Positions 1,230 to 28,482 of a DNA stretch of 28,482 nucleotides are shown here, piece by piece. The position numbers and the translations under genes are program-made. The notes under the pieces were generated by a model. It saw only the letters and a program-made list of their open reading frames with translations, was not told the origin of the DNA and did not search any database. The stretch lies in the IMG/VR virus record IMGVR_UViG_3300021961_000464, positions 1 through 28,482 of that record. The stretch is one strand, 5' to 3'. The DNA is from a virus. The first letter of the stretch is position 1, and every line of letters begins with the position of its first letter.

Positions 1230-4200
1230 TTATTTGCCTTTCTTCAGGTAATCGAGTGGGCTTTTGTGCGCCGGCGGAGGCAGGTCTTTCGGGTGTTTTG
1301 AGCGAGCACGACCTCTGATCTCATGCATCATCTCGTAGAGTTTTTCGGTTCCGGCCTTTGTTGAGCCGTTTCCGAGGGCGCTGACCACATCCGCCGGGAA
1401 GACGAACTCCCCGTCAGCGAGCCACGCCGGAATATCATCCGACTGCCCATCACCGGGACCAGCCACATGTTTACCGTCGCGGAAGTCTTCACGAGCGTGC
1501 CCACCTTTGGCGTACATCATTTGAATGTTCAACGGGGATACTTTTCCGCCTGATTTGAACACCGGAACGTAATCCGATTCATTATAGCTTGAAGATTCTT
1601 GATCGGGCAAGCCCAGAACTTCATCAATCGAGGGCTCTTGGCCATAGGTGTAGTAGGGCATAGCACCGCGCTCCGTTAAAACATTAGCTAGTTCGGGTTG
1701 TATTTGACTGAGTAGTTGCTGTTGATCGGCTTGTTGCTGCAAGGCTTGAAATTCAGCGAGCGGGTCAACGTAAGTGCCGCGCTCTTTAGACTTCAAAAAC
1801 TGCGGGCCTAACCAATCAACACCTGCCGCTACGACACCCGCAGACGGAATCACGGCACTTGAAGTGCTGCTTGGTTGAGAAACTTTAGGCTGCGGAGTCT
1901 TAGGGGTTGGTTCCGCAGGTTTAACAGGCTCAAGAGGCGCAACAATATCAATCTTGGGAGGATCGCCAACATCGATATCATCAAAAACAGTTTCCTGACC
2001 TTCAGGGTCCGTATACGTCACCTTGGTCGTTCCGTCAGGACTCCACGTTACAGTAACTTTAGTGTTTGTGTTCGTATCTGTAACGACCTGTGTCGTGACA
2101 TTCGTGTTGGTGTCAACCGTAACATCTGTTGAGCGAGTGCCATCAACCGTCGTTTGAGTGGTCACGCCCGTGTTTACATCGCTTGTGACCGTAGTGGTCG
2201 TGCTGCCAACCGTCGTTACTTGCGAAGTGACGTTGTTATTGGTTGTGATGGTCGTTGACGTATTGTTGGTACTGTCAACCACGGTCTGACTCGTTACACC
2301 CGTCGTCGCATCCGTTGCGGTTGTGGATGTGACATTGTTGTTTGTTGTGCTATTTGCCGTGATGTTTGAGTTCGCACCCGTAGCTGCCGCGATAGCCGTG
2401 TTGGTGTCCGTGCCAGCAGCGATCGCAGCCGTAATCGAAGAAGCCGCAGCAACCGAGGCGTTAGCCCCTGCATTAGTGGCTGCAGTCACAGCGGAGCTAA
2501 CAGCAGTGCTTGCATCAACGCCGCTTGCGATTGCGATTGATACGGCCGTGCTCGTTGAGCCTGTAACAACTGCCGTCGAATTGGCACCGCTTTGCGTAGC
2601 TGTCGAGACGGCCGCAGTTACCGATGACGCGATAACGGTCGAGGCGTTAGCCCCAGCAGCAAGTCCTGATGTCACCGCAGAATTAACCGCACCTGTAACC
2701 ACCGTTGAAGCACTCGCGCCATTATTTAAGGCTGTTGATACGGCTGAACTGACCGAGCTTGTAACCACCGTTGAGGCATCGGCCCCGGTTGCAATGCCTG
2801 TTTTAACGGAAGACCCAACGGTTGAATCAATAGCTGTCGTGACATTAACGCCGTTATTAAGTGATGCGGTAACCGACCCGGCAACAATTGTGCTTACGGT
2901 TGCTGAAGTACCTGCGCCACTGCTTAAAGCGGTTGAAAGGCCGGCATCAACTGACGAAGCGATAGCAGTTGACATATCGACGCCCGATTGAGCGGCTGTG
3001 CTGATGACTGTTGAAACCGCCGCGCCAGGATTGAGACCATTATTTATTGCGGTCGTAACCGAGCCAGTTGAAGCCTGAACGATGTTGCCAGTCTGAGCGA
3101 GTGTGTCATTGAATGAGGCTTGAACGCCTGAGCCAATCGATGTTGATGCGGCCTGATCGAGCGTATCAAGCCTCGTGCCCTGCATAGAGCCTGCCGTAAC
3201 GCCACCATACAAAGCACCGCCCGTCATGTTTGTGAGCGCGTTTACAGCATCGACAGGCCTACCCAACGCCAAATCAATCGACCCGGCAATGCTGCCTTCC
3301 TCGAGCACTTCCTGCGCTGACTCTTTCAGCGTGGTCTTGCCAACTTGAGATACGCCACTTGCTGCCTCATCAGCCTGGCTGCCAAAGACTTTGCCTGCCA
3401 CCTTGCCTAAGCCAGCAGCACCGCCTGCCAGGGCTACGGTGACGCCAGCAGCCGTGCCGGCAGCTTTCTGGGCGGCTAGGTGCGCATCTTCCTTGGAAGC
3501 GCCTTTGGCAATCTGTGACTCATACTCCGTGTTGTAAGCAGCACCGCCATTTTCTAAGGCTGAGGCAACGGTCTCTTTGACAAGGAAGCTGCCAGGAAAC
3601 TTAAGTGTGGCAAGTTGCAATACTTCTTCAACAACTTCACTGCCGACAGTAGCGCCAAATGCTTTTGGATTATTAAAAGCCGTTGATACTAAGTTACCAA
3701 TATTGGTAGCAAAGTCTTTGATTCCAGAGGACTCGCCAACTCTTTGGATGGCAGCATTGATGTCCTTCTTACCTTGCGTGATGTCAGCGCCTTCTGCTGC
3801 AGTAGCGGCAGCAGCAATTTGATTGGCCTTATCAAGCACTGTCCTACCCGCATCTGTAAAGCCAAGTGCGCTTAATGCGCCAGCGATTGAGTTAGCTCCG
3901 AAGCTCGCTACGCCTTGCGCAGCAACACTGCCAAGCACTGAGTCCACCCTGGGCTTTTCCATTGTGACCGGGCCTGTGGTCGATGGCATCTCTTTGCCAG
4001 CACTATTGACTGATGCTGGCGTGATAAGGGTTCCTGACTTGCCTTCGCTGATTAGCGCGTTTACTGCCTGAACGTACTTGGCGTAATCAGCATCGCTTGT
4101 ACCTCCACCGGCCTGAATAAAGGCTGCGCGGTTATGCATACCGTTGGGTGCAACATACGGGACTTCAGTGGATGGCTTGCTTGTTGTGCCTGATAGGTCA

Positions 4201-6401
4201 GGTCTTTCTGCTGCCGTGGCAGTGCTATAAGTTTTACCTTGCCAGGTAAACGTGGCATCAGCACCGAGTTTATCCCGCGCTAAAGCATAGGCATCATTGA
4301 AATTGCTCTTGCCTGCAATCTCGCCCCTGATGTCGGGCAGGTTCTCAGCGCGAACCTGTGCTTGCTCACCAGAGGTTAATTTGCTGCCTTCAAGAACACC
4401 TCGGCCTCGAGTGACAAGTTCGTTGATCTGCGCGTCGCTATAGCCAGCAGAGGTCAAGGCGCTGCGTAATTGATCTTCAGAGCCTTTGCCTTGCGTAAAG
4501 TTTTGATATGCAGACTGAACGCTTAGCCGGTTTTCAAGCTTGATCGCATTTTGCGCATCAATACCGTTCAATATTTCATTAGCACGATCTGATGTGAAGC
4601 CAGCCGCCACAAGTTCTTGTGTAGCCGTGTTTCGATCAAGCTGTGGTGTGCCGAACTCAGGATCAATCTTTGAGTAGCGGCTCATCACGTCAGCGCCAAC
4701 GCGCTGCATATTGATTCGCTGATCTGCTTGTAGTGCGAAACCTTCGGCCTGATCTGCCGTGAAGCCAAGGTTTTTCAATTGACTAACAAGACCTTCACGG
4801 CTTAAGTCATTACCTGGCCCCAGGTAATCTGATAGGGCTTGATTGGCAGCATTTTGACGCTGCAGCAGTGCGATCTGCTCATCTTCAGCGGCGATCGGAC
4901 TAAGCGCACTCACGCCAAGCGGTGAAGCGTTAGCCTCAAGAAATGCAGCACGATCTTGCGGACTCATATCCGAGGTCGAGCCTTGGGCTAATGAGCCTAA
5001 TACACCGGACTGCAAAAGTGACGTAGCTGCGCCCGTTAAATCGCCCTGCACAGCTCTGTAACCTGCGTTCAAAAGCGATGTTGCTGTGTTCTTATCAAGA
5101 CCCGTTTCAGCCGCCACAAGGTCACCCGCAGCGGCCATGCCGGCACTTGTTGCCAAGGCAACTGGGTTAATTTTTCCTGTCGTGATGAGTTGAGAAACAA
5201 TATTTTTACCGGCAGCCGAAAATTCTGCAGGTAACATGTTTGAAAATTGATTGGCTATCTGCCCCGCACCATAACTTAGAACCGAACCTTTTAGTGCATC
5301 AAGCGGGTCCTGACCGCGTAGCAGTTGAGCACCAAAATTCAGTGCTCCGCTACCCAGGGAAGCCGCACTTGCACCTGTAAGCGCACCGCCTGAAAGGGTG
5401 CCACCTAAGGCTTCGGCTATTCCCGAGCCACCCGCTGCTGCGAGCAGCATAGGTAAAACACCTTCGATCAAAAACTCTTTGAAAAATGGCGTCTCTTTAG
5501 GTACGGTGTAAGGCTTGGCTTCGCCAACGGGCGTTAGCTGCCCGTTTTTCATCATGTAGGCTTGAGCGACGCGATTCTGGCCTGCGTAATCACCACCTGG
5601 CGCACCCCCTACATAGAACAGCACATTGCCCGATGCTATGTCTTGGGGGGTGGCTTGAATAGGTGTTAGCTTACCGTTCTCAACTTTGAAAGTCTCAACA
5701 AATGTTCCGTTATAACGATCACTTGAGCCAGGTTTGAAAAATGCTTGCTGGATGTTAGGGTCCGCAGCCATGAGGAAATCCTCAGCCGCTGTGGTACTAG
5801 CTCTGAAATCAACCCCCGGTTTGACACCAGTTACCGCCTCGGTTTCATTTGAAAGATCGGCCAGATCAGCGCCTAATACGGGTCCAGTCGCTGTTGAAAG
5901 AGCACCTGTAACTGTGTCATTACCTGTTGCACCCGTAACCGAAGTTGCGCCAGTGCTAGAAACAAGGGTGGGCTTGCCAGTAATAGGGTCAAACACATAT
6001 TGACCGGCGTTAGGGTCTGCTATGTAGTATTTTGACGCAGGGTCATTAGGGTTATAACGATCTTCTGTGTAAGTCGCGTCTACATCGGTTTTTGGATCTA
6101 CGGTCGATGCGGACGCAAGTGCCCCGCTGGCAGGTGTCGCGGTTGAAGCAACCACGGGTTCAGGAGTGTAAACAGGCTGCGGAACAACTGAAGCCAACCC
6201 ACCGGGCTTAACACCCGTGACAGCTTCGGTTTCTGTCGGTGCGTAAGAACCCTGATAACCTTGGCTCTTCATCCAATCAATGTCGGCTTGAGAGGCGTAA
6301 TTACGAAGCGTCCCTTCATCGACTTGGTTTGCGTTAAACCAGTCGATTTTTTGCAAGGGATTGTAGTTTTCCCAGCCGCTCGGTAATGCCGGTAGAGCCA
6401 T
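1230..6401 (-). CDS. Giant repeat-containing virion protein, probable internal/ejection protein (1723 aa)
   Basis: The frame is open from 6506, but I place the start at the ATG at 6401 (MALPALPSGWENYNPLQKID). A GAGGA ribosome binding site lies about 10 bases upstream, and the 82-aa gene stops just before it. Parts in order: an N-terminal region holding ETEAVTGVKPG twice; hydrophobic Ala/Gly-rich segments (from about residue 310); a helical region of repeated L-x3-GFT-x2-QA units (about 540-690); a short aromatic module with FTWQGKTYST; further Ala/Gly-rich hydrophobic helices; a 22-residue repeat array (about 1110-1340); a Thr/Asn-rich segment (about 1340-1455); a Pro/Lys-rich linker; and a C-terminal domain with FKSGGK, YAKGGH and GPGDGQSDDIPAWLADGEF. 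From memory, that C-terminal motif is widespread in phage virion proteins. Size and amphipathic content suit a DNA-ejection channel component, as in T7-like phages. A transglycosylase or other enzyme motif is not evident. The family assignment is inference. Confidence 0.8.
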   Translation of the reverse strand: MALPALPSGWENYNPLQKIDWFNANQVDEGTLRNYASQADIDWMKSQGYQGSYAPTETEAVTGVKPGGLASVVPQPVYTPEPVVASTATPASGALASASTVDPKTDVDATYTEDRYNPNDPASKYYIADPNAGQYVFDPITGKPTLVSSTGATSVTGATGNDTVTGALSTATGPVLGADLADLSNETEAVTGVKPGVDFRASTTAAEDFLMAADPNIQQAFFKPGSSDRYNGTFVETFKVENGKLTPIQATPQDIASGNVLFYVGGAPGGDYAGQNRVAQAYMMKNGQLTPVGEAKPYTVPKETPFFKEFLIEGVLPMLLAAAGGSGIAEALGGTLSGGALTGASAASLGSGALNFGAQLLRGQDPLDALKGSVLSYGAGQIANQFSNMLPAEFSAAGKNIVSQLITTGKINPVALATSAGMAAAGDLVAAETGLDKNTATSLLNAGYRAVQGDLTGAATSLLQSGVLGSLAQGSTSDMSPQDRAAFLEANASPLGVSALSPIAAEDEQIALLQRQNAANQALSDYLGPGNDLSREGLVSQLKNLGFTADQAEGFALQADQRINMQRVGADVMSRYSKIDPEFGTPQLDRNTATQELVAAGFTSDRANEILNGIDAQNAIKLENRLSVQSAYQNFTQGKGSEDQLRSALTSAGYSDAQINELVTRGRGVLEGSKLTSGEQAQVRAENLPDIRGEIAGKSNFNDAYALARDKLGADATFTWQGKTYSTATAAERPDLSGTTSKPSTEVPYVAPNGMHNRAAFIQAGGGTSDADYAKYVQAVNALISEGKSGTLITPASVNSAGKEMPSTTGPVTMEKPRVDSVLGSVAAQGVASFGANSIAGALSALGFTDAGRTVLDKANQIAAAATAAEGADITQGKKDINAAIQRVGESSGIKDFATNIGNLVSTAFNNPKAFGATVGSEVVEEVLQLATLKFPGSFLVKETVASALENGGAAYNTEYESQIAKGASKEDAHLAAQKAAGTAAGVTVALAGGAAGLGKVAGKVFGSQADEAASGVSQVGKTTLKESAQEVLEEGSIAGSIDLALGRPVDAVNALTNMTGGALYGGVTAGSMQGTRLDTLDQAASTSIGSGVQASFNDTLAQTGNIVQASTGSVTTAINNGLNPGAAVSTVISTAAQSGVDMSTAIASSVDAGLSTALSSGAGTSATVSTIVAGSVTASLNNGVNVTTAIDSTVGSSVKTGIATGADASTVVTSSVSSAVSTALNNGASASTVVTGAVNSAVTSGLAAGANASTVIASSVTAAVSTATQSGANSTAVVTGSTSTAVSIAIASGVDASTAVSSAVTAATNAGANASVAAASSITAAIAAGTDTNTAIAAATGANSNITANSTTNNNVTSTTATDATTGVTSQTVVDSTNNTSTTITTNNNVTSQVTTVGSTTTTVTSDVNTGVTTQTTVDGTRSTDVTVDTNTNVTTQVVTDTNTNTKVTVTWSPDGTTKVTYTDPEGQETVFDDIDVGDPPKIDIVAPLEPVKPAEPTPKTPQPKVSQPSSTSSAVIPSAGVVAAGVDWLGPQFLKSKERGTYVDPLAEFQALQQQADQQQLLSQIQPELANVLTERGAMPYYTYGQEPSIDEVLGLPDQESSSYNESDYVPVFKSGGKVSPLNIQMMYAKGGHAREDFRDGKHVAGPGDGQSDDIPAWLADGEFVFPADVVSALGNGSTKAGTEKLYEMMHEIRGRARSKHPKDLPPPAHKSPLDYLKKGK
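2035..2370 (-). repeat. Thr/Asn/Val-rich low-complexity segment inside the 1723-aa gene
   Basis: This stretch encodes about 110 residues made almost only of Thr, Asn, Val, Ser and Asp, with recurring elements NNNVTS, TTTVTSDVNTGVTTQT and DTNTNVTTQVVTDTNTNT. The alternating Thr/Val pattern suggests beta strands or a beta-solenoid stalk, unlike the helical-looking repeats just before it in the protein. It ends in a conserved-looking sequence (VTWSPDGTTKVTYTDPEGQE). The boundaries are approximate. Confidence 0.7.
2380..3075 (-). repeat. 22-residue (66-bp) imperfect tandem repeats inside the 1723-aa gene
   Basis: About ten imperfect copies follow the pattern S-x-V-x2-A-V-x2-A-x3-G-A-x-A-S-T-x-V-x. 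The clearest are SSVSSAVSTALNNGASASTVVT, then GAVNSAVTSGLAAGANASTV and SSVTAAVSTATQSGANSTAV, which follow without gaps at a period of 22 residues. Spacing becomes less regular at both ends. The DNA copies have diverged considerably, so this is an old array rather than a recent microsatellite expansion. It also produces a long open frame on the opposite strand, which I do not consider a gene. Confidence 0.8.
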
Positions 6402-6402
6402 T

Positions 6403-6651
6403 TTAGTTAGTCCTCGGGTTAACGGCCCCGACCACTGCCGAGGCCCACTCTTGCCAGTCGTCGAACTGATACGGTTCGGGGATAGCCTCATTGGCGAACA
6501 CGTCAATGGCTTTTAGGCCTGCCGCCCAGGACTTCCAATCCAAGTCCGTTGTGGGGATTTGGAGCTGCTGCGCAGCGTACAGCTCACACATCAGCGCCGC
6601 CCAAGAATCAAACGTATGGTAGCGCGGGTCATAGATTAGTGCTACGCTCAT
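6403..6651 (-). CDS. Small acidic, Trp-rich phage protein of unknown function (82 aa)
   Basis: A small soluble acidic protein with many aromatic residues (YDPRYHTFDSWAALM, DLDWKSWAAGLKAID, PYQFDDWQEWASAVVGAVNP). Two similar halves each carry a D/F-W-x-x-W/A motif, so it may be an internal duplication. Its ATG overlaps the stop of the nozzle-like gene (ATGA), which suggests translational coupling. It lies directly before the giant 1723-aa virion gene and could be a chaperone or structural partner of the neighbouring tail proteins. That is inference from position only. I do not recognise a named family. Confidence 0.75.
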   Translation of the reverse strand: MSVALIYDPRYHTFDSWAALMCELYAAQQLQIPTTDLDWKSWAAGLKAIDVFANEAIPEPYQFDDWQEWASAVVGAVNPRTN

Positions 6652-15172: not shown

Positions 15173-17095
15173 TTAAGCTCCTTTCAGTGCAGCAAGTTCG
15201 GCTTTCACCGTGTCGAGTTCAGATTTGAGTTCTTGGATGGCTGCGGTCAACAGCGGAACAATTTCCGTGTAGTTGACACCCCAGTAGTTCTGCTCACCAG
15301 ATCGTGGATCAGTTTCATGGGTTGGCACATCAACGACTTCTGGTAGCACTTGATGGAGTTCTTGTGCAATGAAACCAAGATTCTGAGCATTTGCCGCATC
15401 ACGCTTCCATGAGAACCACACTGGATTCATTGCCTGAACTTTGGCAAGCGCCCCAGTGATGCCGCCAGTCACATTCTTGAGTCGTGCGTCAGAAGAACTT
15501 GTCCAACTTGTGCCTCCGTTCGCAACATACGGGCCTTGCGTATATACGATTCCATTGCTTATACTACCTATAGGGGAGGTATAAGTAGTAATGTTGCTAC
15601 CAAAATTGATCCGGGATGAATAGTCATTAACTGAATAAATGAATCCAGTACTAGTTGGTGCAAAGCCATAACCAACAGACCCATAATTCCCGCTTGGTGC
15701 GCCAATAGAAATACAGCCATAGCCCCCGTTGTTGTAATCCGCAACCAACAGCATGACGCCAGCCGCTTGATTAAGAGCGGTAATTGAATTGCCTACGGTA
15801 AATGCACCGTTTCCATTCCCGTAAAACCTCGGATTCCCATCCCCATCCGACAGCACGATGTAGTTGCTGGAGGTGCGGATGTCGAGGCCACCTTGGTTGC
15901 CGGTGTAAGCACCAATGATGGTGTTTTTCTGACCCGTTGTAATTGCAGAACCAGACCCATATCCAATCGCAGTGTTGTACCCATTCGTGTCGGCTGTTCT
16001 GTTGCTAGCATTAAGTGCCTGCCAACCAACAGCAGTGTTATAAGAGGCGGTGGTGTTGGAAACAAGAGATTGACCTCCTACCGCAGTGTTGTATGAACCG
16101 CCTGTTAACGCACTAAGAACTGCTCGCCCAATACCGACGTTATCCTGTCCTGTGACGCCCGCACTGTTGTTCATTACATAAGAGCCAAGCGCAGTGTTAT
16201 TAGAGCCCGTAGTAATCGTTCGTCCAGCATCATTGCCAACAAGGGTGTTATCTGAGCTTGTAACAAAGTATCCAGCCCGACTGCCAACAGCAGTGTTGGT
16301 TGCGCCGGTGATGTTGGAGTAGAGAGCAGTATTTCCAACAGCAGTGTTGGTAGCCACAGCGCCTGCGCCACGGCCTACTCTTACACCGTAAACTGTTATA
16401 TCTGAGGTATCACCATCCTGATACGCCATACTTCCCAGATACTGATTCAACGGGATTTCGTTAGGGGCAGTTCCAATGTCGGATTGGGAGACAACTGGGT
16501 AGCTGTTTTCAGTGAAGGCGGTTGAAGAAACGCTGCTCAGACCAGTAAGTGAGTCAACCCACTGCGGAGCCGAGCCGCTTGAAGTCATCACACGGTTTGC
16601 AGCACCGACGGCCAACTTGGTCAGCGTCGTGCCTGTGCTGTAGTAGACCATATCCCCAGCGGTGTAGGAGGACAGGCCCGTGCCGCCATTGGAAGTAATT
16701 AGCGTACCAGCAACGGTCACCGCGCCTGAGGTCGCTGTGCTAGGCGTAAGTCCCGTGGACCCAAAAGAGATAGTGTTAACACCCAGCGATGAAAGGTCTG
16801 CCCAAGTGGGCGCTGCTGCTCCGTTTGAGCGCAAAATTTGGCCTGAAGAACCTGCTGCTGTTAGCGCCAGGGCACTTCCCGTTCCGTACTGAACGCCACC
16901 ATTTGTGGGCGTTACCGTACTTGACCCATACCCGATAGACAACAACCTAACATTGCCGCTACTGTTTTTATAAAACAATTTACCGTCAGCAATGTTGATC
17001 GCAAGCTCACCGCTGACGAGGTTACCCGCTGTAGGCTCAGCCGCAGCCGTGGTCGAGTAGTAGAGGGATATAGGGGTGAACCCTGATGCTGCCAT
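15173..17095 (-). CDS. Tail fibre/spike with YadA-like head repeats and C-terminal S74 self-cleaving chaperone domain (640 aa)
   Basis: The N-terminus (GFTPISLYYSTTAAAEPTAG, then GELAINIADGKLFYKN) is typical of phage fibres that attach to the virion. A GGTGLSSYTAGDMVYYS module follows (about residues 138-180). Residues about 240-402 hold nine NTAVG-type repeats like the head of trimeric autotransporters, which form a beta-roll trimer. The C-terminus is a peptidase S74 (intramolecular chaperone) domain: SDARLKN gives the predicted Ser535/Lys540 dyad, followed by NPVWFSWKRD, NLGFIAQELHQVLPEVV, NYTEIVPLLTAAIQEL and a terminal coiled coil. By analogy with phage endosialidases, the trimer would fold with this domain and then cleave just before Ser535. 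It is likely a receptor-binding protein. A GAGGAC ribosome binding site precedes the ATG. Confidence 0.88.
   Translation of the reverse strand: MAASGFTPISLYYSTTAAAEPTAGNLVSGELAINIADGKLFYKNSSGNVRLLSIGYGSSTVTPTNGGVQYGTGSALALTAAGSSGQILRSNGAAAPTWADLSSLGVNTISFGSTGLTPSTATSGAVTVAGTLITSNGGTGLSSYTAGDMVYYSTGTTLTKLAVGAANRVMTSSGSAPQWVDSLTGLSSVSSTAFTENSYPVVSQSDIGTAPNEIPLNQYLGSMAYQDGDTSDITVYGVRVGRGAGAVATNTAVGNTALYSNITGATNTAVGSRAGYFVTSSDNTLVGNDAGRTITTGSNNTALGSYVMNNSAGVTGQDNVGIGRAVLSALTGGSYNTAVGGQSLVSNTTASYNTAVGWQALNASNRTADTNGYNTAIGYGSGSAITTGQKNTIIGAYTGNQGGLDIRTSSNYIVLSDGDGNPRFYGNGNGAFTVGNSITALNQAAGVMLLVADYNNGGYGCISIGAPSGNYGSVGYGFAPTSTGFIYSVNDYSSRINFGSNITTYTSPIGSISNGIVYTQGPYVANGGTSWTSSSDARLKNVTGGITGALAKVQAMNPVWFSWKRDAANAQNLGFIAQELHQVLPEVVDVPTHETDPRSGEQNYWGVNYTEIVPLLTAAIQELKSELDTVKAELAALKGA
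15890..16378 (-). repeat. Nine YadA-like NTAVG repeats in the 640-aa fibre
   Basis: The encoded repeats start near residues 250, 267, 283, 300, 319, 336, 353, 374 and 391: NTAVGNTAL, NTAVGSRAG, NTLVGNDAG, NTALGSYVM, NVGIGRAVL, NTAVGGQSL, NTAVGWQAL, NTAIGYGSG and NTIIGAYTG. Spacing is 16-21 residues. This is the pattern of left-handed parallel beta-roll heads of trimeric adhesins. DNA identity between copies is moderate (recurring GCAGTGTT cores on the plus strand), so slippage or recombination could change copy number. Confidence 0.85.
16556..16684 (-). repeat. GGTG-SYTAGD fibre module, copy in the 640-aa fibre
   Basis: The encoded segment is GGTGLSSYTAGDMVYYSTGT, then TLTKLAVGAANRVMTSSGSA and PQW. 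The same 43-residue module occurs three times in the upstream 866-aa fibre (18558-18686, 17583-17711, 17322-17450). These related DNA stretches are possible sites for recombination between the two fibre genes. Confidence 0.8.
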
Positions 17096-20051: not shown

Positions 20052-21122
20052 TCAGGCCGTGTAAACGCTAATATTCGGCGCGAAGTAAATAGGAGAACGG
20101 TCGCGTTCTTCTTGCTCGGCCAGGTTCAGGTACTTTTCGGCTTGCGTTTCGAGGTACTGAACGCGGTCGAGAGGGACTGCGGGCAGTTCGAGCGACAACT
20201 GGTGGCTGAGCATAGCGAGTGTGGCGAGGTACCACCTCTGAGGTATCTGCAGGTCATCGGTAAGCCGCCCAACGTCCATGATTTGCTTCGAATACCAAAC
20301 GGTCATCTGCACAAACGGATCTGAAGGCGTCGGCCAGAGGTAAATTTCAGGCTGCGGAATGGTGCGGTTGAACCAGAACTGATAAGGTTGGTTGGCCGTG
20401 AAGTTCTTGTTAGGCAAGTTGGTGTAATCATCACGGTTCAGGCGCGACATCGTGATCTCGCGACTGTTGTTACCCACGTACCACTCACGCAGTGCTAACG
20501 TCGTGCCCCCTGAGGCCTCAATTCGGTAATACCGAACGGTCTGACCGGGGTCAATGTCATACCACAACCATTGATTGTCAGTCACCGCCGTAGTGCCGAC
20601 GTTCTCAAGTGTGTTCCAAGTCGACCCATCAGCTGAATACTTCAGGGTGAAGGTCCAAGTGGCACTTCCACCACCCGAAACATAAGGCAGCACACCGATA
20701 GATCCCGCATAAACGGGGTTATCTGTTCCGAAATCGACCGTAATGTTGCCGTTAGCTGAGGTCTGCTGGCAGTACGTGTCGACGTCATTGTCGGCTACGT
20801 TGCTGACCGTTCCCCCAGCCGAGGTGCTATAGCTACCCGTGGGGCGGTTCATAGTGCGATACAGCGCATTCAGCACATCATTAGCCCCAACGGGCAACTT
20901 GTAAATGTATTTGTCGGGGGTCAGACCGATGACTTCTTTTTCAACCGCCCAGTACTGTATACCGATATTGATCAAATTGGTCATCACAAAGCCCAGCGAC
21001 TCCCGCGCCGTAAGCAGCTGCTCGCTGGTGAGCTCTTCGGCCAGCTTTCCGCATCGCCGAGCGGCATGGTCGATGAGCGTCTGGACGTTGTAGATCTGAC
21101 CGTAAGTGTCTGAGTAAGCCAT
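20052..21122 (-). CDS. Head-tail adaptor-like protein with nested F5/8C (discoidin) domain (356 aa)
   Basis: The outer parts look like a head-completion/adaptor protein (P22 gp4-like). The N-terminal helices are VQTLIDHAARRCGKLAEELT, QLLTARESLGFVMTNLINIG and WAVEKEVIGL. After the insert come NREITMSRLNR-type residues, RDDYTNLPNKNF, PQPEIYLWPTPSDPFVQMTV and helices RWYLATLAMLSHQLSLELPA and VQYLETQAEKYLNLAEQEER. Between about residues 96 and 216 sits a jelly-roll resembling F5/8 type C domains: a VADNDVDTYCQQTSANGNIT start, NITVDFGTDNPVYAGSIGV, FTLKYSADGSTWNTLENVGT, and RYYRIEASGGTTLALREWYV. The adaptor would dock under the portal, and the insert would project outward, perhaps to bind glycans. 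This is the first adaptor after the capsid genes. Confidence 0.8.
   Translation of the reverse strand: MAYSDTYGQIYNVQTLIDHAARRCGKLAEELTSEQLLTARESLGFVMTNLINIGIQYWAVEKEVIGLTPDKYIYKLPVGANDVLNALYRTMNRPTGSYSTSAGGTVSNVADNDVDTYCQQTSANGNITVDFGTDNPVYAGSIGVLPYVSGGGSATWTFTLKYSADGSTWNTLENVGTTAVTDNQWLWYDIDPGQTVRYYRIEASGGTTLALREWYVGNNSREITMSRLNRDDYTNLPNKNFTANQPYQFWFNRTIPQPEIYLWPTPSDPFVQMTVWYSKQIMDVGRLTDDLQIPQRWYLATLAMLSHQLSLELPAVPLDRVQYLETQAEKYLNLAEQEERDRSPIYFAPNISVYTA
20475..20837 (-). other. Inserted F5/8 type C-like domain within the adaptor gene
   Basis: This segment encodes about residues 96-216. It has the sequence order of a discoidin fold (D-x-D-x-T-Y/W ... DFG/DLG ... S-x-DG-x-TW ... RY-x-RI ... 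AL-RE-x-x-V) and begins and ends within what otherwise reads as one adaptor protein. The domain boundaries are estimated by eye. Confidence 0.7.
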
Positions 21123-24254: not shown

Positions 24255-25172
24255 TTAGACTCCGGGCGTGCCGTACATTGCGCGCCAATCGGTGAAGCCC
24301 ACATCATAACGCTCAGTGGCCTTGTAGCGCATGGAGTCGGTTTCGAAGTCACCTTCCATGGTCTTTTCAAGGGCACGACGCATCATGAGCTTCATACCTT
24401 CGGGCGTGTCGGTCTGCACCCACCATGCGGTCGAGCTGGTCAAACGCGACAACACTGCGGCACCCTCGTCGAGCAAGCCAATCGACTTGACCGGGTTGAT
24501 GTCGTTGTTGGCTTGACCGGCACGCAGCACACTCTTGAGCAACACTTCGGCTTGGAAGATGTTGCCCGGAGCGACGACGAGCTGTCGTGGCACGAGGCGA
24601 ATCTTTTTGCCGTTGTTGTCAACCGCCTGACGCACCTGAATGAGCATCTGCTCAAGGGAGGTCTGGCTGAGGTTGGCCGCTGTGGTGAGGAGGTTGCTCA
24701 CCGTACCGTTTACGATGGGGTGCGAGGCGCTGTTAAGCGCTACACCGTCACCACCGGCATACTGCCCGCCCGTAAAGGCGTTGTTCAGCACGTTGGCGCA
24801 CAGGGTTTCTTTGGTCTCGACCAAAGACTGTGCCAGGTGACGAGCGTACACCGACCCGATGCGGATGTGGTCGCCGTCTTCGACGAGGACTTTCGTCAAC
24901 GCGAAGGCTAAACCGTACACCGAGTAGACGTAACGCTTCAGGAACAACACGCCGCCCTGCTGATAGGTTACGGGGCTGCCGTCGGGAAGCAACGGTGCCA
25001 AGCCGAAACCGTACAGGACGGGTTCCTCATGGTAATTACGGGGAATGCCGTTCTGCTCGCGGAAGACTCGCGACCACTCATCGGCACGCTGATCATAGAC
25101 TCCGTCGAAGCACTCGTTCAGGATAGGCTCAACGATGCTCCGAAAGTCCGTACTGCGCATTGGGGCTGCCAT
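24255..25172 (-). CDS. Probable major capsid protein (305 aa)
   Basis: Position (after scaffold and decoration genes), size and an excellent ribosome binding site (AAGGAGG, 8 bases from the ATG) fit the most highly expressed virion gene. The sequence resembles HK97-fold coat proteins of the Mu gpT-like group. It has an N-terminal arm (FRSIVEPILNECFDGVYDQR), an E-loop-like stretch, and helix HIRIGSVYARHLAQSLVETK followed by ETLCANVLNNAFTGG. After that come DGVALNSASHPIV, the spine-like helix LEQMLIQVRQAVDNNGKKIR, LVPRQLVVAPGN and ARRALEKTMEGDFETD-like residues near the end (FTDWRAMYGTPGV). It would assemble the icosahedral shell around the scaffold. A hairpin follows the gene. Confidence 0.85.
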   Translation of the reverse strand: MAAPMRSTDFRSIVEPILNECFDGVYDQRADEWSRVFREQNGIPRNYHEEPVLYGFGLAPLLPDGSPVTYQQGGVLFLKRYVYSVYGLAFALTKVLVEDGDHIRIGSVYARHLAQSLVETKETLCANVLNNAFTGGQYAGGDGVALNSASHPIVNGTVSNLLTTAANLSQTSLEQMLIQVRQAVDNNGKKIRLVPRQLVVAPGNIFQAEVLLKSVLRAGQANNDINPVKSIGLLDEGAAVLSRLTSSTAWWVQTDTPEGMKLMMRRALEKTMEGDFETDSMRYKATERYDVGFTDWRAMYGTPGV

Positions 25173-25186
25173 TTGTTAGCCCTCCT

Positions 25187-25801
25187 TTAAGCTACGGTAA
25201 CGGGGTAAGCCACCGCCGCACCTTCGTAAATACCAGCGTACTGGAACTCAGCGATCTGCACACGAACGATCGTGTACGAATCACCCCATGCGTTGCCCGG
25301 ATACGGTGCCAAGTCGATGACGCGCAGCGTCTTGGTAGCGTTAGCGCCAGCAGCGGTTGTACCCATAGTGGCTTGAGACAGACCAACGAGCGTCGGATCC
25401 CCTGTGGTGGGGTTGTACGGGTTGGTGATGTCAAACTCCTGGCCCAGGGCGGTTTGCGCAATCGAGCCTTCGGCTTGAATTTCGTAAACCACTTTCGGGT
25501 CGGTCCAAACGTACGCAATGAGTGAGCCGCTCTGATACCCCGTGCCCGAAGGCCAGCAGTTCGAAACGCGGCGACGCCCCGTCGTGTCTGTCCACTCGAC
25601 GCCATCAAAGACGCCGTAGATTGGATCGCCACTCGCGGCACGAACGATATACCCAGTTGTTGGGTCGAGCTTGACGGCCTGACCCTTCAAGATGTTCTGA
25701 GCATACCCCGACTGAATCACATTGGCCAGCCCCTGCGCACGATCGAGCCCCGAGGGGTGATACGCAGGCCGCAAACCAAAGGGTGCTAAGGTTGCAGACA
25801 T
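25187..25801 (-). CDS. Probable capsid decoration/cement or minor structural protein (204 aa)
   Basis: The start MSATLAPFGLRPAYHPSGLD is a signature I remember in structural proteins encoded just upstream of phage coat genes. The body is beta-rich (ILKGQAVKLDPTTGYIVRAA, PIYGVFDGVEWTDTTGRRRV, IAYVWTDPKVVYEIQAEGSI) with a C-terminal strand region (YTIVRVQIAEFQYAGIYEGA). These features suit a cement protein binding the outer capsid face. A GGAGT site precedes the ATG. The order scaffold, unknown, decoration, coat supports it. An alternative is a minor head protein. Confidence 0.75.
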   Translation of the reverse strand: MSATLAPFGLRPAYHPSGLDRAQGLANVIQSGYAQNILKGQAVKLDPTTGYIVRAASGDPIYGVFDGVEWTDTTGRRRVSNCWPSGTGYQSGSLIAYVWTDPKVVYEIQAEGSIAQTALGQEFDITNPYNPTTGDPTLVGLSQATMGTTAAGANATKTLRVIDLAPYPGNAWGDSYTIVRVQIAEFQYAGIYEGAAVAYPVTVA

Positions 25802-25819: not shown

Positions 25820-26368
25820 TTAACCCTCGAAGACCGGGGGTCGGTTGACGGATGAATTTGCCACTCGTCCGAAGCCTTCGCCTTCCGTTTTCAGGAGTTT
25901 GTGTCCTGAGCTGTCAGCGCCCTGTTGAAGTTCCTCCATACGTTCCATGATCGCTTGGGTTGCTTCCATTGGTTTTTGGTAATGAAAGTGCGTCATGACC
26001 CGCTGGTAGAGTTCAGTCGGAATCTTAAACAGCAACATTTCGTTGCACGAAATGTGACCCACATGCTCGCCCGCTTTTACGCGATAATTCTCAAACCCAG
26101 GTAACTCATCGGCTGTCACCGGAACGTACCCCAGTCGGATTCGCTTGTCAATCGTGTCGTAGCTGTTAGTGGTGGAAAGCCAGCACATGTGCCAACCCGG
26201 CAGGGCGGGCACGTTCGGCAGGGCGGTTTGCGTCCACTCGTCACTCCACATTTTGTCAATGTCCTGTGAGGCGGCGAACATAGTCTCCGGCGGAAGGCGG
26301 TCGAGGTCTTCGCTTGCGCGGCTTTCTCGGCCTCCGGCGGAGAGAGATTTCTTGAGTCTTGAATCCAT
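25820..26368 (-). CDS. Unknown head-operon protein (182 aa)
   Basis: A soluble protein with an N-terminal charged part (MDSRLKKSLSAGGRESRASE, then DLDRLPPETMFAAS), a middle with unusual Trp, Cys and Tyr (GWHMCWLSTTNSYDTIDKRI, RLGYVPVTADELPGFENYRV), KAGEHVGHISCNEMLLFKIP, and a helical C-terminal part (YQRVMTHFHYQKPMEATQAI, MERMEELQQGAD). The sequence around GYVPVTADELPGF and NEMLLFKIP looks like a conserved phage domain that I recall between scaffold and coat genes, without a known role. An AGGA site lies upstream. It is probably a head assembly or minor head protein. Confidence 0.75.
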   Translation of the reverse strand: MDSRLKKSLSAGGRESRASEDLDRLPPETMFAASQDIDKMWSDEWTQTALPNVPALPGWHMCWLSTTNSYDTIDKRIRLGYVPVTADELPGFENYRVKAGEHVGHISCNEMLLFKIPTELYQRVMTHFHYQKPMEATQAIMERMEELQQGADSSGHKLLKTEGEGFGRVANSSVNRPPVFEG

Positions 26369-26386: not shown

Positions 26387-27379
26387 TTAGCGTGGGTTAG
26401 CAGCAGCACGTTTGCGGGCTTCCGCCGCGTAGCGCTTGATCATGCTGTTGCGCTTGACGGGGTCGTCCCAAAAGCCGGCATCCTTCATGGCGCGTACTTG
26501 ATCGGGCTCAAGCATGAACTGCCCCTTAGGGGAGCCGCCACTATTTGATGATTCGCGACCGGTGCTAGTTTGCATATTCCGAGGCCTTGAACGCTGGTTC
26601 GGCGCATTATAGCTCAATTCATACCGATGAGGCAAGTACTTTTTTGCGCGATCATCGAGTTCATCCCAATAGTCCTGGCTCGCGGGGTTCCAGCCCTCGG
26701 CGGTGAGCTCTTCGTCGATCTGTTTGACGATGCGGGAGTCGGTGTCGCGATGCTGCGGGTCGTACCATTCGCTGCGCTTGATCCACTCGGCCGCCATCTT
26801 CTGCACTCTCGGGTCGGGCAGGGTGTTGGGCTGCTGCTTGGGGGTGGAGCTCGCCTTTTTCAGATTCTTCAAAGATTCGAGCTGCTGCCTGGACTCGTAC
26901 CACATTTCTTGCGCCTGCGCCAGGGCGTCGCCGTCTTGAGCACGGGTCGCTTCGGCAATCTTGCGTTTAGCGTACTCGAGCCGCAGCTCTTGGTCTTCGA
27001 CCGCCCGGTCCAACTTGGCGAGTTCGCCGGCGTGGGTTTTGCGCTCAACAACGCTCAACCGCTCCATCAACTCTTGATTCTGCCGCTGGAGTAGCTGCAA
27101 CCGCTGGTCTTTCTCGGCGCTGGTTTTGCGGGCTAGTTCGCGCTTGGCACGGCGGCGCTCGCGTTTAGCGTTGCGTAGCGCCTCGGTGTCGTCGTCAGCG
27201 TCGGCGTCAGCGGGATCGTCGGCGGGGCCGCCTTCAGCCTTGCTTTGCGGTGGGTCGTCATCGTCGTCGTGCTGGTCCGGGGGCGGGGCGAGGTCTTCCG
27301 GCAGCGCCACCGCGACTGAACCGTCGGGCTGTTCGGTGATCTCGATATCGGGTTCTTTTGTGTCTGTGCTCGTACTCAT
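26387..27379 (-). CDS. Probable capsid scaffolding protein (330 aa)
   Basis: The composition is that of a scaffold. An acidic, disordered N-terminus (about residues 35-67, Asp/Pro-rich) precedes a long charged coiled coil (about 65-185, with RERRRAKRELARKTSAEKDQ, LQLLQRQNQELMERLSVVER and LDRAVEDQELRLEYAKRKIA). The C-terminal part holds PRVQKMAAEWIKRSEWYDPQ and DYWDELDDRAKKYLPHRYEL, then a basic end (SMIKRYAAEARKRAAANPR) of the kind that contacts coat protein. It would guide coat assembly and leave or be degraded. The ATG overlaps the stop of the GroES-like gene (ATGA), suggesting coupled translation. No protease domain is visible. Confidence 0.8.
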   Translation of the reverse strand: MSTSTDTKEPDIEITEQPDGSVAVALPEDLAPPPDQHDDDDDPPQSKAEGGPADDPADADADDDTEALRNAKRERRRAKRELARKTSAEKDQRLQLLQRQNQELMERLSVVERKTHAGELAKLDRAVEDQELRLEYAKRKIAEATRAQDGDALAQAQEMWYESRQQLESLKNLKKASSTPKQQPNTLPDPRVQKMAAEWIKRSEWYDPQHRDTDSRIVKQIDEELTAEGWNPASQDYWDELDDRAKKYLPHRYELSYNAPNQRSRPRNMQTSTGRESSNSGGSPKGQFMLEPDQVRAMKDAGFWDDPVKRNSMIKRYAAEARKRAAANPR

Positions 27380-27816
27380 AGGAATGCCTTAGTCTCGAGG
27401 GGGTTAGTGGTGATTCGGGCAATGACCTCATGGTCATTCACGATCATAAACAACGCGGGGTCTTCAAGGTGGTCCTCACCGGGCACTTTGACCTCCCAAC
27501 GGTCGCCGCCCCACTTGGGCACACGAATAAAGTCACCCACCGCGCACCACGACCCCTCGGGCCAGGGGTTCATCGAGTCGCGATGCCGAAAGGCGAGCGG
27601 CCCCACGGCGATGACTTTGGCGACCTGGGTGTTCCACTTTTCGGTCTCTTTGGTTTCCTCAACAAGTACGATTCCTGCTTTGGTGGTCTTTTTGCGGCTG
27701 CGGCGCAACTGCACCAACAATCGCCCACCTAACGGCTGCGCACCAGGATCCACGCTCGGGAAAGCCCAAGCCATCTCAGCGTCTTGCGACGCTACTGGTT
27801 CAGTCATCATGTTCAT
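27376..27816 (-). CDS. GroES-like co-chaperonin (146 aa)
   Basis: Residues about 28-136 resemble GroES/Cpn10: PLGGRLLVQLRRSRKK, the mobile-loop region TKAGIVLVEETKETEK, VAKVIAVGPLAF, GSWCAVGDFIRVPKWGGDRW, and ALFMIVNDHEVIARI. Ile49-Val50-Leu51 align with the GroES tripeptide that binds GroEL. Phages such as T4 (Gp31) encode GroES analogues to fold their coat protein in the host chaperonin. It is longer than GroES (about 97 aa), with extra residues at the N-terminus (about 28) and in the dome region (residues 76-95). The start has a GAGGA site and overlaps the previous gene by 17 bases. Its stop overlaps the scaffold start (ATGA). It likely helps fold coat or scaffold proteins. Confidence 0.85.
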   Translation of the reverse strand: MNMMTEPVASQDAEMAWAFPSVDPGAQPLGGRLLVQLRRSRKKTTKAGIVLVEETKETEKWNTQVAKVIAVGPLAFRHRDSMNPWPEGSWCAVGDFIRVPKWGGDRWEVKVPGEDHLEDPALFMIVNDHEVIARITTNPLETKAFL

Positions 27817-27991
27817 CTTCTTCCTCTATAAAGTTCTCAATAATATCAAGGGCTTTTTGCAGCCCCATGTGTTCGCCGACCATGCGCTGGTACGCCTCCC
27901 ATGACGCAGCGTTACCCGCCGCTAAGGACTGGCCTATCTCAGCCTGACGTGCCTTATACGCGCCGATCAGCTGGCTCAGGGTTAGGGTCAC
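27800..27991 (-). CDS. Small helical phage protein (63 aa)
   Basis: A small protein predicted to be fully helical (MTLTLSQLIGAYKARQAEIG, QSLAAGNAASWEAYQRMVGE, HMGLQKALDIIENFIEEEDE), ending in an acidic tail. It starts with GTG and overlaps the stop of the 55-aa gene (GTGA). Its 3' end overlaps the GroES-like gene by 17 bases. I recall similar short helical proteins near the portal genes of aquatic phages without a known function. The dense overlaps place it in the head operon. Confidence 0.75.
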   Translation of the reverse strand: MTLTLSQLIGAYKARQAEIGQSLAAGNAASWEAYQRMVGEHMGLQKALDIIENFIEEEDEHDD

Positions 27992-28155
27992 TTGTTTTTA
28001 CGTGCTAACGGGGCGGGGGCTCCTTTTGATGAGGGTTGAGGGGCGGTGCTACCTTTAGACTTGAGACTAGTACCGTCGAGCGCCGCACCCATAGCGATGC
28101 GCTTGTGATAGGGGACGGCTTCGTTGTCTTTGAGGTTATTGGATGGTTGGGCCAC
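27988..28155 (-). CDS. Small basic phage protein downstream of the portal (55 aa)
   Basis: A GTG at 28153-28155 has a clear AGGAG ribosome binding site about 7 bases upstream. The product begins MAQPSNNLKDNEAVPYHKRI, contains AMGAALDGTSLKSKG, and ends in a Ser/Pro/Ala-rich basic tail (PSSKGAPAPLARKNK). It overlaps the end of the portal-like gene by 20 bases and ends in GTGA shared with the next gene. The central AVPYHKRIAMGAALDG stretch looks conserved but I do not know the family. It is disordered apart from that. Confidence 0.65.
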   Translation of the reverse strand: MAQPSNNLKDNEAVPYHKRIAMGAALDGTSLKSKGSTAPQPSSKGAPAPLARKNK

Positions 28156-28482
28156 GTTCAGCTCCTAGGTTACGTTGGGCTTCGTTTTGAAGCCGGATTG
28201 CAGTTTCCAACTGCTCGGTGCGCAGCCTGTCATCTTCTTGAGTCAGGCGTGCGGTTTCTATACGCTCGCGGGTCAGGTTATCCGAGGCGTTCAGCGCCAC
28301 GTCAATCTGATCACGCTCGGCGGCGCGTTGCTGTTCGGCTTGAAGCCGCGCCAGGTCAATTTGCCCCCGCTGTTGCATGTCAGCCCCTTTGAGCTGCATC
28401 TCGGCCTGATCGCGCTGGGCGCGACGTTGGGTTTCGGCCATCGCGGTCTCTTTGAGCACCAACGCCTTGGGCGGTAGCTGAG
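28136..28482 (-). CDS. C-terminal end of a probable portal protein (partial, runs off the right edge)
   Basis: The frame is open to the window edge (...QLPPKALVLKETAMAETQRR) and ends with TAA at 28136-28138. A TTG at 28462 is only an internal codon here, so the true start lies outside. The visible 115 residues form a long charged helix or coiled coil rich in Gln, Arg, Glu and Ala (DQAEMQLKGADMQQRGQIDL, ARLQAEQQRAAERDQIDVAL). The C-terminal coiled coil and the position before the scaffold match portal proteins of P22-like and related podophages, in which such a helical barrel projects into the capsid. A coiled-coil protein encoded between portal and scaffold is an alternative. Confidence 0.65.
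   Translation of the reverse strand, partial: QLPPKALVLKETAMAETQRRAQRDQAEMQLKGADMQQRGQIDLARLQAEQQRAAERDQIDVALNASDNLTRERIETARLTQEDDRLRTEQLETAIRLQNEAQRNLGAERGPTIQ

What the first reader, a model, noticed from the sequence alone, without database searches (positions are those of the whole stretch)
27376..27816. A GroES-like co-chaperonin encoded inside the head-assembly operon
The sequence shows the GroES order of strands and an exact Ile-Val-Leu tripeptide (residues 49-51) in the mobile-loop position, which in GroES contacts GroEL. It is known that T4 supplies Gp31 because its coat protein needs a larger folding cage. Here the gene sits between the portal end and the scaffold, with an ATGA overlap to the scaffold gene, unlike T4 where gene 31 is apart. 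Extra residues in the dome region (about 76-95) could enlarge the cage for the 305-aa coat protein. The link to coat folding is inference.
Basis: partly seen in the sequence, partly recalled or inferred. Interest (0 to 1): 0.65.

Follow-up and report, generated by a model that had tools for sequence, protein, structure and literature searches.

The report
Phage co-chaperonin in head operon
The gene is a genuine viral version of the bacterial folding helper GroES; it sits with the virus's shell-building genes in every close relative examined and probably helps the host's chaperonin fold shell proteins, which was already known for related viruses.

Summary
The finding holds. The minus-strand ORF 27376-27816 (146 aa) is a real Cpn10/GroES-family protein by profile (PF00166, PHROG 3188), by fold (AlphaFold model against GroES and Gp31) and by strong purifying selection. 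I49-V50-L51 lies in a low-confidence mobile loop, and the 4-base ATGA overlap with the next ORF is present. It is not an isolated curiosity: all 19 deposited phage records with a relative of this coat protein carry a Cpn10, 18 of them in the same head-gene order, and GroES is already reported as a core gene of HTVC023P-type pelagiphages. No GroEL was found in 30 records, so it would act on the host's GroEL. The 'enlarged dome' idea is not supported: the roof is retained (Gp31 lacks it) and the coat is only 33.6 kDa (T4 gp23: ~56 kDa). What is conserved instead is a 4-residue lengthening of the mobile loop's C-terminal arm, in every member of the window's clade and of one divergent sister clade and most of another, and absent from the bacterial and unrelated phage GroES checked. 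Gp31 also has a longer loop, but lengthened on the other arm. Verdict: new member of a known kind, with a testable dedicated-co-chaperonin hypothesis; the client is inferred.

The parts
27376..27816 (-). Cpn10/GroES-family co-chaperonin, 146 aa (P0001)
   Evidence: PF00166 E 3.2e-7, 30.7 bits over cut-off 21.1, residues 27-115; PHROG 3188 co-chaperonin GroES 3.2e-9; AF2 model matches Cpn10 structures; dN/dS 0.03-0.10
27637..27696 (-). mobile loop (about residues 41-60) with GroEL-binding-type tripeptide I49-V50-L51
   Evidence: block means of 52 and 46 pLDDT for residues 41-60; tripeptide in relatives IIL/IVL/IML/ILL/LIV in all 59 window-clade rows; C-terminal arm 14 residues against 10 in bacterial GroES
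27535..27600 (-). roof/dome segment (about residues 73-94), 4 residues longer than E. coli GroES
   Evidence: anchor-to-anchor length 21 against 17 in E. coli GroES and 10 in T4 Gp31
27376..27379 (-). ATGA overlap: end of groES and start of the next gene
   Evidence: same 4-base overlap in 60 of 80 relatives
26387..27379 (-). 330-aa acidic, charged ORF, scaffold candidate (function inferred)
   Evidence: PHROG 28737, unknown function; a relative is found near groES in 80 of 80 relatives
25820..26368 (-). 182-aa head-module ORF of unknown function
   Evidence: conserved position in relatives
25187..25801 (-). 204-aa head-module ORF (PHROG 37556, unknown function)
   Evidence: conserved position
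24255..25172 (-). major capsid protein, 305 aa, 33.6 kDa; suggested client
   Evidence: PF25209 2.1e-12, PHROG 4523 4.8e-15; mass
28136..28480 (-). C-terminus of the portal protein (runs off the window)
   Evidence: matches the 853-aa portal in L006, E 4.9e-59; PHROG 1216 portal 2.8e-15
27800..27991 (-). 63-aa small ORF between portal and groES, overlapping the groES start
   Evidence: relatives in 83 of 88 sequences searched
27988..28155 (-). 55-aa small ORF after the portal
   Evidence: ORF only

Best explanation
The gene encodes a phage GroES. Seven copies should form a cap whose mobile loops (tripeptide I49-V50-L51) bind the apical domains of the HOST GroEL, replacing or supplementing host GroES late in infection, so that GroEL folds head-module proteins; the 33.6-kDa coat protein is the most likely client. 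Shown here: family, fold, disordered loop with the tripeptide, purifying selection, lack of a phage GroEL in 30 related records, and fixed placement with the coat and scaffold-candidate genes. Inferred: heptamer, GroEL binding, late timing, and the identity of the client.
For: Family. Fold: PDB best E 8.1e-6, top 21 rows all GroES, Hsp10, Gp31 or Cpn20-type chains or complexes holding them; Z 8.7 to M. tuberculosis Cpn10; 7.8 to Gp31 in the GroEL complex. Tripeptide conserved. Selection. No PF00118 GroEL in 30 records, control ringing in 14 of 14 genomes. Linkage to the coat: 19 of 19 phage records with a coat relative carry a Cpn10, 18 in the same order; divergent coat clades in IMG/VR 44 of 44 and 30 of 30 loci with at least 4.5 kb upstream, against 0 of 80 T7-coat and 0 of 4 Mu-coat loci; with the Pfam model alone 19 of 21 records against 0 of 14. 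From the GroES side 57 of 57 loci with enough downstream DNA have the coat gene. GroES stays beside the scaffold candidate when the portal is 9-11 kb away (CRP-901, CRP-902, MW202675).
Against: No binding, oligomer or folding data. The coat is small, so no cage-size argument exists. Co-occurrence is inherited with a whole head module and cannot separate coat, scaffold candidate and other neighbours. In some QDWS535-like relatives the tripeptide is degenerate (IEL, LDL, LIK), so GroEL binding may not be kept everywhere. In the distant vir526-like coats only 3 of 12 loci have a Cpn10.
Confidence: 0.7

Rival explanations
1. A general GroES supplement: it caps host GroEL, but to raise or retune overall folding capacity for many phage or host proteins, not the coat in particular; its place in the head operon only gives late expression.
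For: Bacterial-type GroES occurs in jumbo and other phages outside a head operon, e.g. Flavobacterium phage immuto beside its own GroEL, Vibrio phage D93, BcepSauron. Gp31 itself can replace GroES for all E. coli clients (PMC6318259).
Against: Strict linkage to one coat lineage and retention beside scaffold-candidate and coat genes when the portal has moved.
Confidence: 0.22
2. A GroES fold re-used as a head-assembly or structural ring without GroEL.
For: Position between portal and scaffold candidate; degenerate tripeptide in some QDWS535-like relatives.
Against: In the window clade all 59 rows keep a hydrophobic tripeptide, in a loop predicted with low confidence as in GroES, which is what GroEL binding would require.
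Confidence: 0.05
3. The extra dome residues enlarge the cage for an oversized coat.
For: Roof segment is 4 residues longer than in E. coli GroES.
Against: Coat 33.6 kDa against ~56 kDa for gp23; Gp31 gains volume by lacking the roof and lengthening the loop; roof length varies among coat-linked relatives (9 to 21), while the loop's +4 hardly does.
Confidence: 0.02
4. Chance resemblance, or the real gene is the antisense ORF 27407-27904 (+).
For: A 165-aa ORF is open on the + strand.
Against: The antisense frame is open in only 10 of 86 relatives, while the minus-strand protein has dN/dS 0.03-0.10.
Confidence: 0.01

Closest known systems
GroES of HTVC023P-type pelagiphages (HTVC023P, HTVC027P) and related head modules (CRP-901, DSL-LC04, Pag-Yong1, Caulobacter phage RW)
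   Same: Same gene order GroES - ~300-350-aa ORF - ~155-185 aa - ~185-205 aa - coat; same loop lengthening; GroES is in the 13-gene core genome of HTVC023P-type phages (PMC9599517)
   Different: 31-63% identity to the window protein; the window clade has 3-4 more roof residues than HTVC and a longer C-terminal hairpin
Bacterial GroES / Cpn10 (PF00166)
   Same: Fold, strand order, mobile loop with hydrophobic tripeptide
   Different: Mobile-loop C-terminal arm 14 against 10 residues, roof 21 against 17, N- and C-terminal extensions; far below NCBIfam GroES cut-offs (best 26.7 against 120 bits)
T4 Gp31
   Same: Phage-encoded Cpn10-fold co-chaperonin; model aligns to 1g31 and to the GroEL-Gp31 complex 2cgt (Z 6.9 and 7.8); longer mobile loop than GroES
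   Different: Gp31 lengthens the front arm (19 against 15) and lacks the roof (10 against 17); the window protein lengthens the back arm and keeps the roof; gene 31 lies near rIII, cd and DNA ligase genes
GroES of Shewanella phage 1/44 and Vibrio phage 1.050.O
   Same: GroES within the structural operon of phages whose protease-coat fusion is a distant relative of the window coat (blastp of two sequences 1.8e-6)
   Different: Placed between tail-completion and major tail genes; ordinary loop length of 10

Membership tests
Cpn10 / GroES family (PF00166, PHROG 3188) | Profile score above the curated cut-off | tested here: met
   30.7 bits against 21.1; PHROG 3188 3.2e-9
Cpn10 / GroES family (PF00166, PHROG 3188) | GroES beta-barrel fold | tested here: met
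   AF2 pTM 0.76; Foldseek E 8.1e-6; Z 8.7 to 1p3h, 96 residues, rmsd 2.8
Cpn10 / GroES family (PF00166, PHROG 3188) | Flexible mobile loop with hydrophobic tripeptide for GroEL | tested here: met
   Low pLDDT at 41-60; IVL at 49-51, hydrophobic in all 59 window-clade rows
Cpn10 / GroES family (PF00166, PHROG 3188) | Heptameric ring | not testable with these tools
   Only single chains can be predicted
Cpn10 / GroES family (PF00166, PHROG 3188) | Binds GroEL and supports folding | not testable with these tools
   Needs biochemistry
Housekeeping GroES (NCBIfam equivalogs) | Score above the NCBIfam equivalog/subfamily cut-off | tested here: not met
   Best 26.7 bits, cut-offs 96-142
T4 Gp31-type co-chaperonin | Roof hairpin absent | tested here: not met
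   Roof segment 21 residues against 10 in Gp31
T4 Gp31-type co-chaperonin | Lengthened mobile loop | tested here: met
   About 5 residues longer than E. coli GroES, mainly in the C-terminal arm; in Gp31 the other arm is longer
T4 Gp31-type co-chaperonin | Required for folding the phage coat protein | not testable with these tools
   Co-occurrence with the coat gene is consistent with it but is not a test
HTVC023P-type head module | Gene order GroES - ~300-aa ORF - two ORFs - homologous coat | tested here: met
   Window genes

The most novel reading that the evidence does not exclude
The co-chaperonins of this portal/coat module form a dedicated viral lineage whose mobile loop has gained four residues on its C-terminal arm, so that the cap sits differently on host GroEL; this would be a Gp31-like adaptation reached independently and bound to one coat-protein lineage, implying that this coat fold needs a custom GroEL cap.
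Probability: 0.3. Interest if true: 0.6.

Novelty: new member of a known kind. Interest (0 to 1): 0.35.

Why it matters
Phage GroES genes are known, but outside T4 their client is mostly unproven. A module in which GroES and the coat gene are practically inseparable, in phages of the abundant marine SAR11 group, of Roseobacter, of freshwater cyanobacteria and of the laboratory host Caulobacter vibrioides, lets one ask directly why some HK97-like coats come with their own chaperonin cap and others (T7) do not. The near-constant +4 loop gives a defined structural feature to test.

Tried and rejected
Enlarged-dome mechanism: rejected on coat mass and roof/loop lengths. Antisense ORF 27407-27904 (+): open in 10 of 86 relatives only. 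Phage-encoded GroEL partner: none in 30 records. Host inference from bacterial genomes: the 8 hits are mostly short contigs in MAGs assigned to several phyla, most likely phage contigs binned with bacteria, so the host stays unknown. Separating portal from coat by co-occurrence: portal relatives are found in 18 of the same 19 phage records, so only gene distance gives a hint. Search for a published description of this exact linkage: none found in the held library; Marine et al. [quoted passage not shown]

Full report
OBSERVATION. The window record is a 28,482-base virus contig. The finding's coordinates correspond to a minus-strand ORF, ATG at 27816 and TGA ending at 27376, 146 aa. Ile49-Val50-Leu51 is present as stated, and the stop overlaps the start of the next ORF (330 aa, 26387-27379) in an ATGA.

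FAMILY AND FOLD. Pfam Cpn10 PF00166 matches residues 27-115 at E 3.2e-7, 30.7 bits against a curated cut-off of 21.1; PHROG 3188 'co-chaperonin GroES' at 3.2e-9; single-sequence phmmer against the PDB finds Thermus and mycobacterial Cpn10 at 0.002-0.013, and a profile of 34 viral relatives finds GroES, Hsp10 and Cpn20 chains at 1e-9 to 1e-22. An AlphaFold2 model from that alignment has mean pLDDT 80 and pTM 0.76, with low confidence at the N-terminus and around residues 41-60, the mobile loop. Foldseek and VIA-align place it with Cpn10/GroES and also with T4 Gp31; in BFVD the best matches are viral proteins named GroES. It is far from housekeeping GroES: NCBIfam GroES models give at most 26.7 bits against cut-offs of 96-142. 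Pairwise dN/dS against relatives is 0.03-0.10 (synonymous changes are near saturation in the more distant pairs), so the protein is under strong purifying selection.

NEIGHBOURHOOD. Upstream is the portal C-terminus and two small ORFs; downstream are the 330-aa charged ORF (scaffold candidate, PHROG 28737 of unknown function), ORFs of 182 and 204 aa, and the 305-aa coat (PF25209). The same order occurs in MW202545, Caulobacter phage RW, HTVC023P, HTVC027P, DSL-LC04, 023Pt_psg01, CRP-901/902, MW202785, Pag-Yong1/Pra-JY27, QDWS535, MW202796 and, with insertions, MW202675.

LINKAGE TO THE COAT. tblastn with the window coat finds 19 records among 50,697 phage records; every one carries a Cpn10, the vir526 record (methanogen hosts) being the only one with it elsewhere. 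Some of the 19 are near-copies (four Caulobacter phages, three 65,014-base cyanophage records). As a baseline, tblastn with a bacterial GroES finds it in only 95 phage records in all (this misses divergent ones). In IMG/VR I took two divergent coat clades (MW202675-like and QDWS535-like): of loci with at least 4.5 kb upstream of the coat gene 44 of 44 and 30 of 30 have a Cpn10 on the same strand 1.8-3.4 kb upstream; T7 coat loci 0 of 80, Mu coat loci 0 of 4, and the remote vir526-like coats 3 of 12. The HMM used there included members of these clades, so I repeated a sample with Pfam alone: 19 of 21 records at E <= 0.001 (16 over the cut-off) against 0 of 14 T7/Mu records. From the GroES side, 57 of 57 loci with at least 3.6 kb downstream have the coat gene and 64 of 64 with upstream DNA have the portal C-terminus. 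Portal relatives occur in 18 of the same 19 records, but in CRP-901, CRP-902 and MW202675 the portal is about 9-11 kb away while GroES remains directly beside the scaffold candidate. All these are related modules, so the counts are not independent events; they show an inherited, practically unbroken association, not a mechanism. More remote coat relatives are looser: MW202601 has a Cpn10 far from its coat gene, and the 10.8-kb fragment MT836833 has none. A partly separate case is Shewanella phage 1/44 and Vibrio phage 1.050.O, whose protease-coat fusions are distant relatives of the window coat and whose GroES lies elsewhere in the structural operon.

LOOP AND ROOF. With E. coli GroES as ruler, the segment between the tripeptide and the following strand is 14 residues in the window protein against 10 in E. 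coli. It is 14 in 58 of 58 distinct window-clade proteins and 48 of 48 MW202675-like ones, and 13-16 in 30 of 31 QDWS535-like ones; it is 10 in six bacterial GroES and 10-11 in three vir526-linked ones, and 8-10 in six GroES of unrelated phages. The profile alignments to solved Cpn10s show the same 4-residue gap. The roof segment is 21 in the window (17 in GroES, 10 in Gp31) and varies from 9 to 21 among coat-linked relatives. Gp31's larger chamber is attributed to longer mobile loops (22 against 16 residues) and to missing roof loops, for a client of ~56 kDa (PMC6318259). The window coat is 33.6 kDa.

MECHANISM. No GroEL was found in 30 records, 29 of them related and one T4 (control: 14 of 14 genomes), so the partner must be host GroEL. 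The best explanation is a phage GroES cap, made with the head genes, that engages host GroEL to fold head proteins, the coat being the likeliest client. Family, fold, loop, selection and linkage are shown; heptamer, GroEL binding, timing and client are inferred.

KNOWN OR NEW. GroES is already named as one of 13 core genes of HTVC023P-type pelagiphages (PMC9599517), labelled in CRP-901-type genomes (PMC10149686) and annotated in most relatives. The window gene is a new member of that kind. I found no description of the strict coat linkage or of the +4 loop in the held papers, but Marine et al. 2017 could not be read.

Noticed in passing
window 20052-21122 (-): 356-aa protein combining an F5/8 type C (discoidin-like) domain with a sub-threshold SU10-type head-tail adaptor match: an adaptor with a possible carbohydrate-binding domain inserted or fused.
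   Followed up: no
window 15173-17095 (-): Tail fibre of 640 aa ending in a Peptidase_S74 intramolecular chaperone domain.
   Followed up: no
window 1230-6506 (-): 1758-aa ORF without any PHROG or Pfam match, next to a 357-aa ORF that is also without a clear match.
   Followed up: no
L373 4016-4291, L374 3992-4297: Vibrio phage 1.050.O and Shewanella phage 1/44 carry a GroES with an ordinary loop between tail-completion and major tail genes, with a protease-coat fusion distantly related to the window coat.
   Followed up: partly
L199-L248 Cpn10 genes (e.g. L215, L229, L201): QDWS535-like phages have Cpn10s with degenerate tripeptides (IEL, LDL, LIK) and, in 14 of 31, a front loop arm of 22 residues instead of 15; these may have altered or lost GroEL binding.
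   Followed up: partly
L097 1-270 (BK063670.1): A virus record assigned to methanogen hosts (vir526) carries a Cpn10 upstream of the terminase rather than in the head operon.
   Followed up: partly
L120 record (G022, 90,582 bases): Two Cpn10 matches of identical score on opposite strands in one viral contig, possibly a duplicated or palindromic assembly.
   Followed up: no
window 27407-27904 (+): A 165-aa antisense ORF over groES; open in only 10 of 86 relatives, so not a gene.
   Followed up: yes
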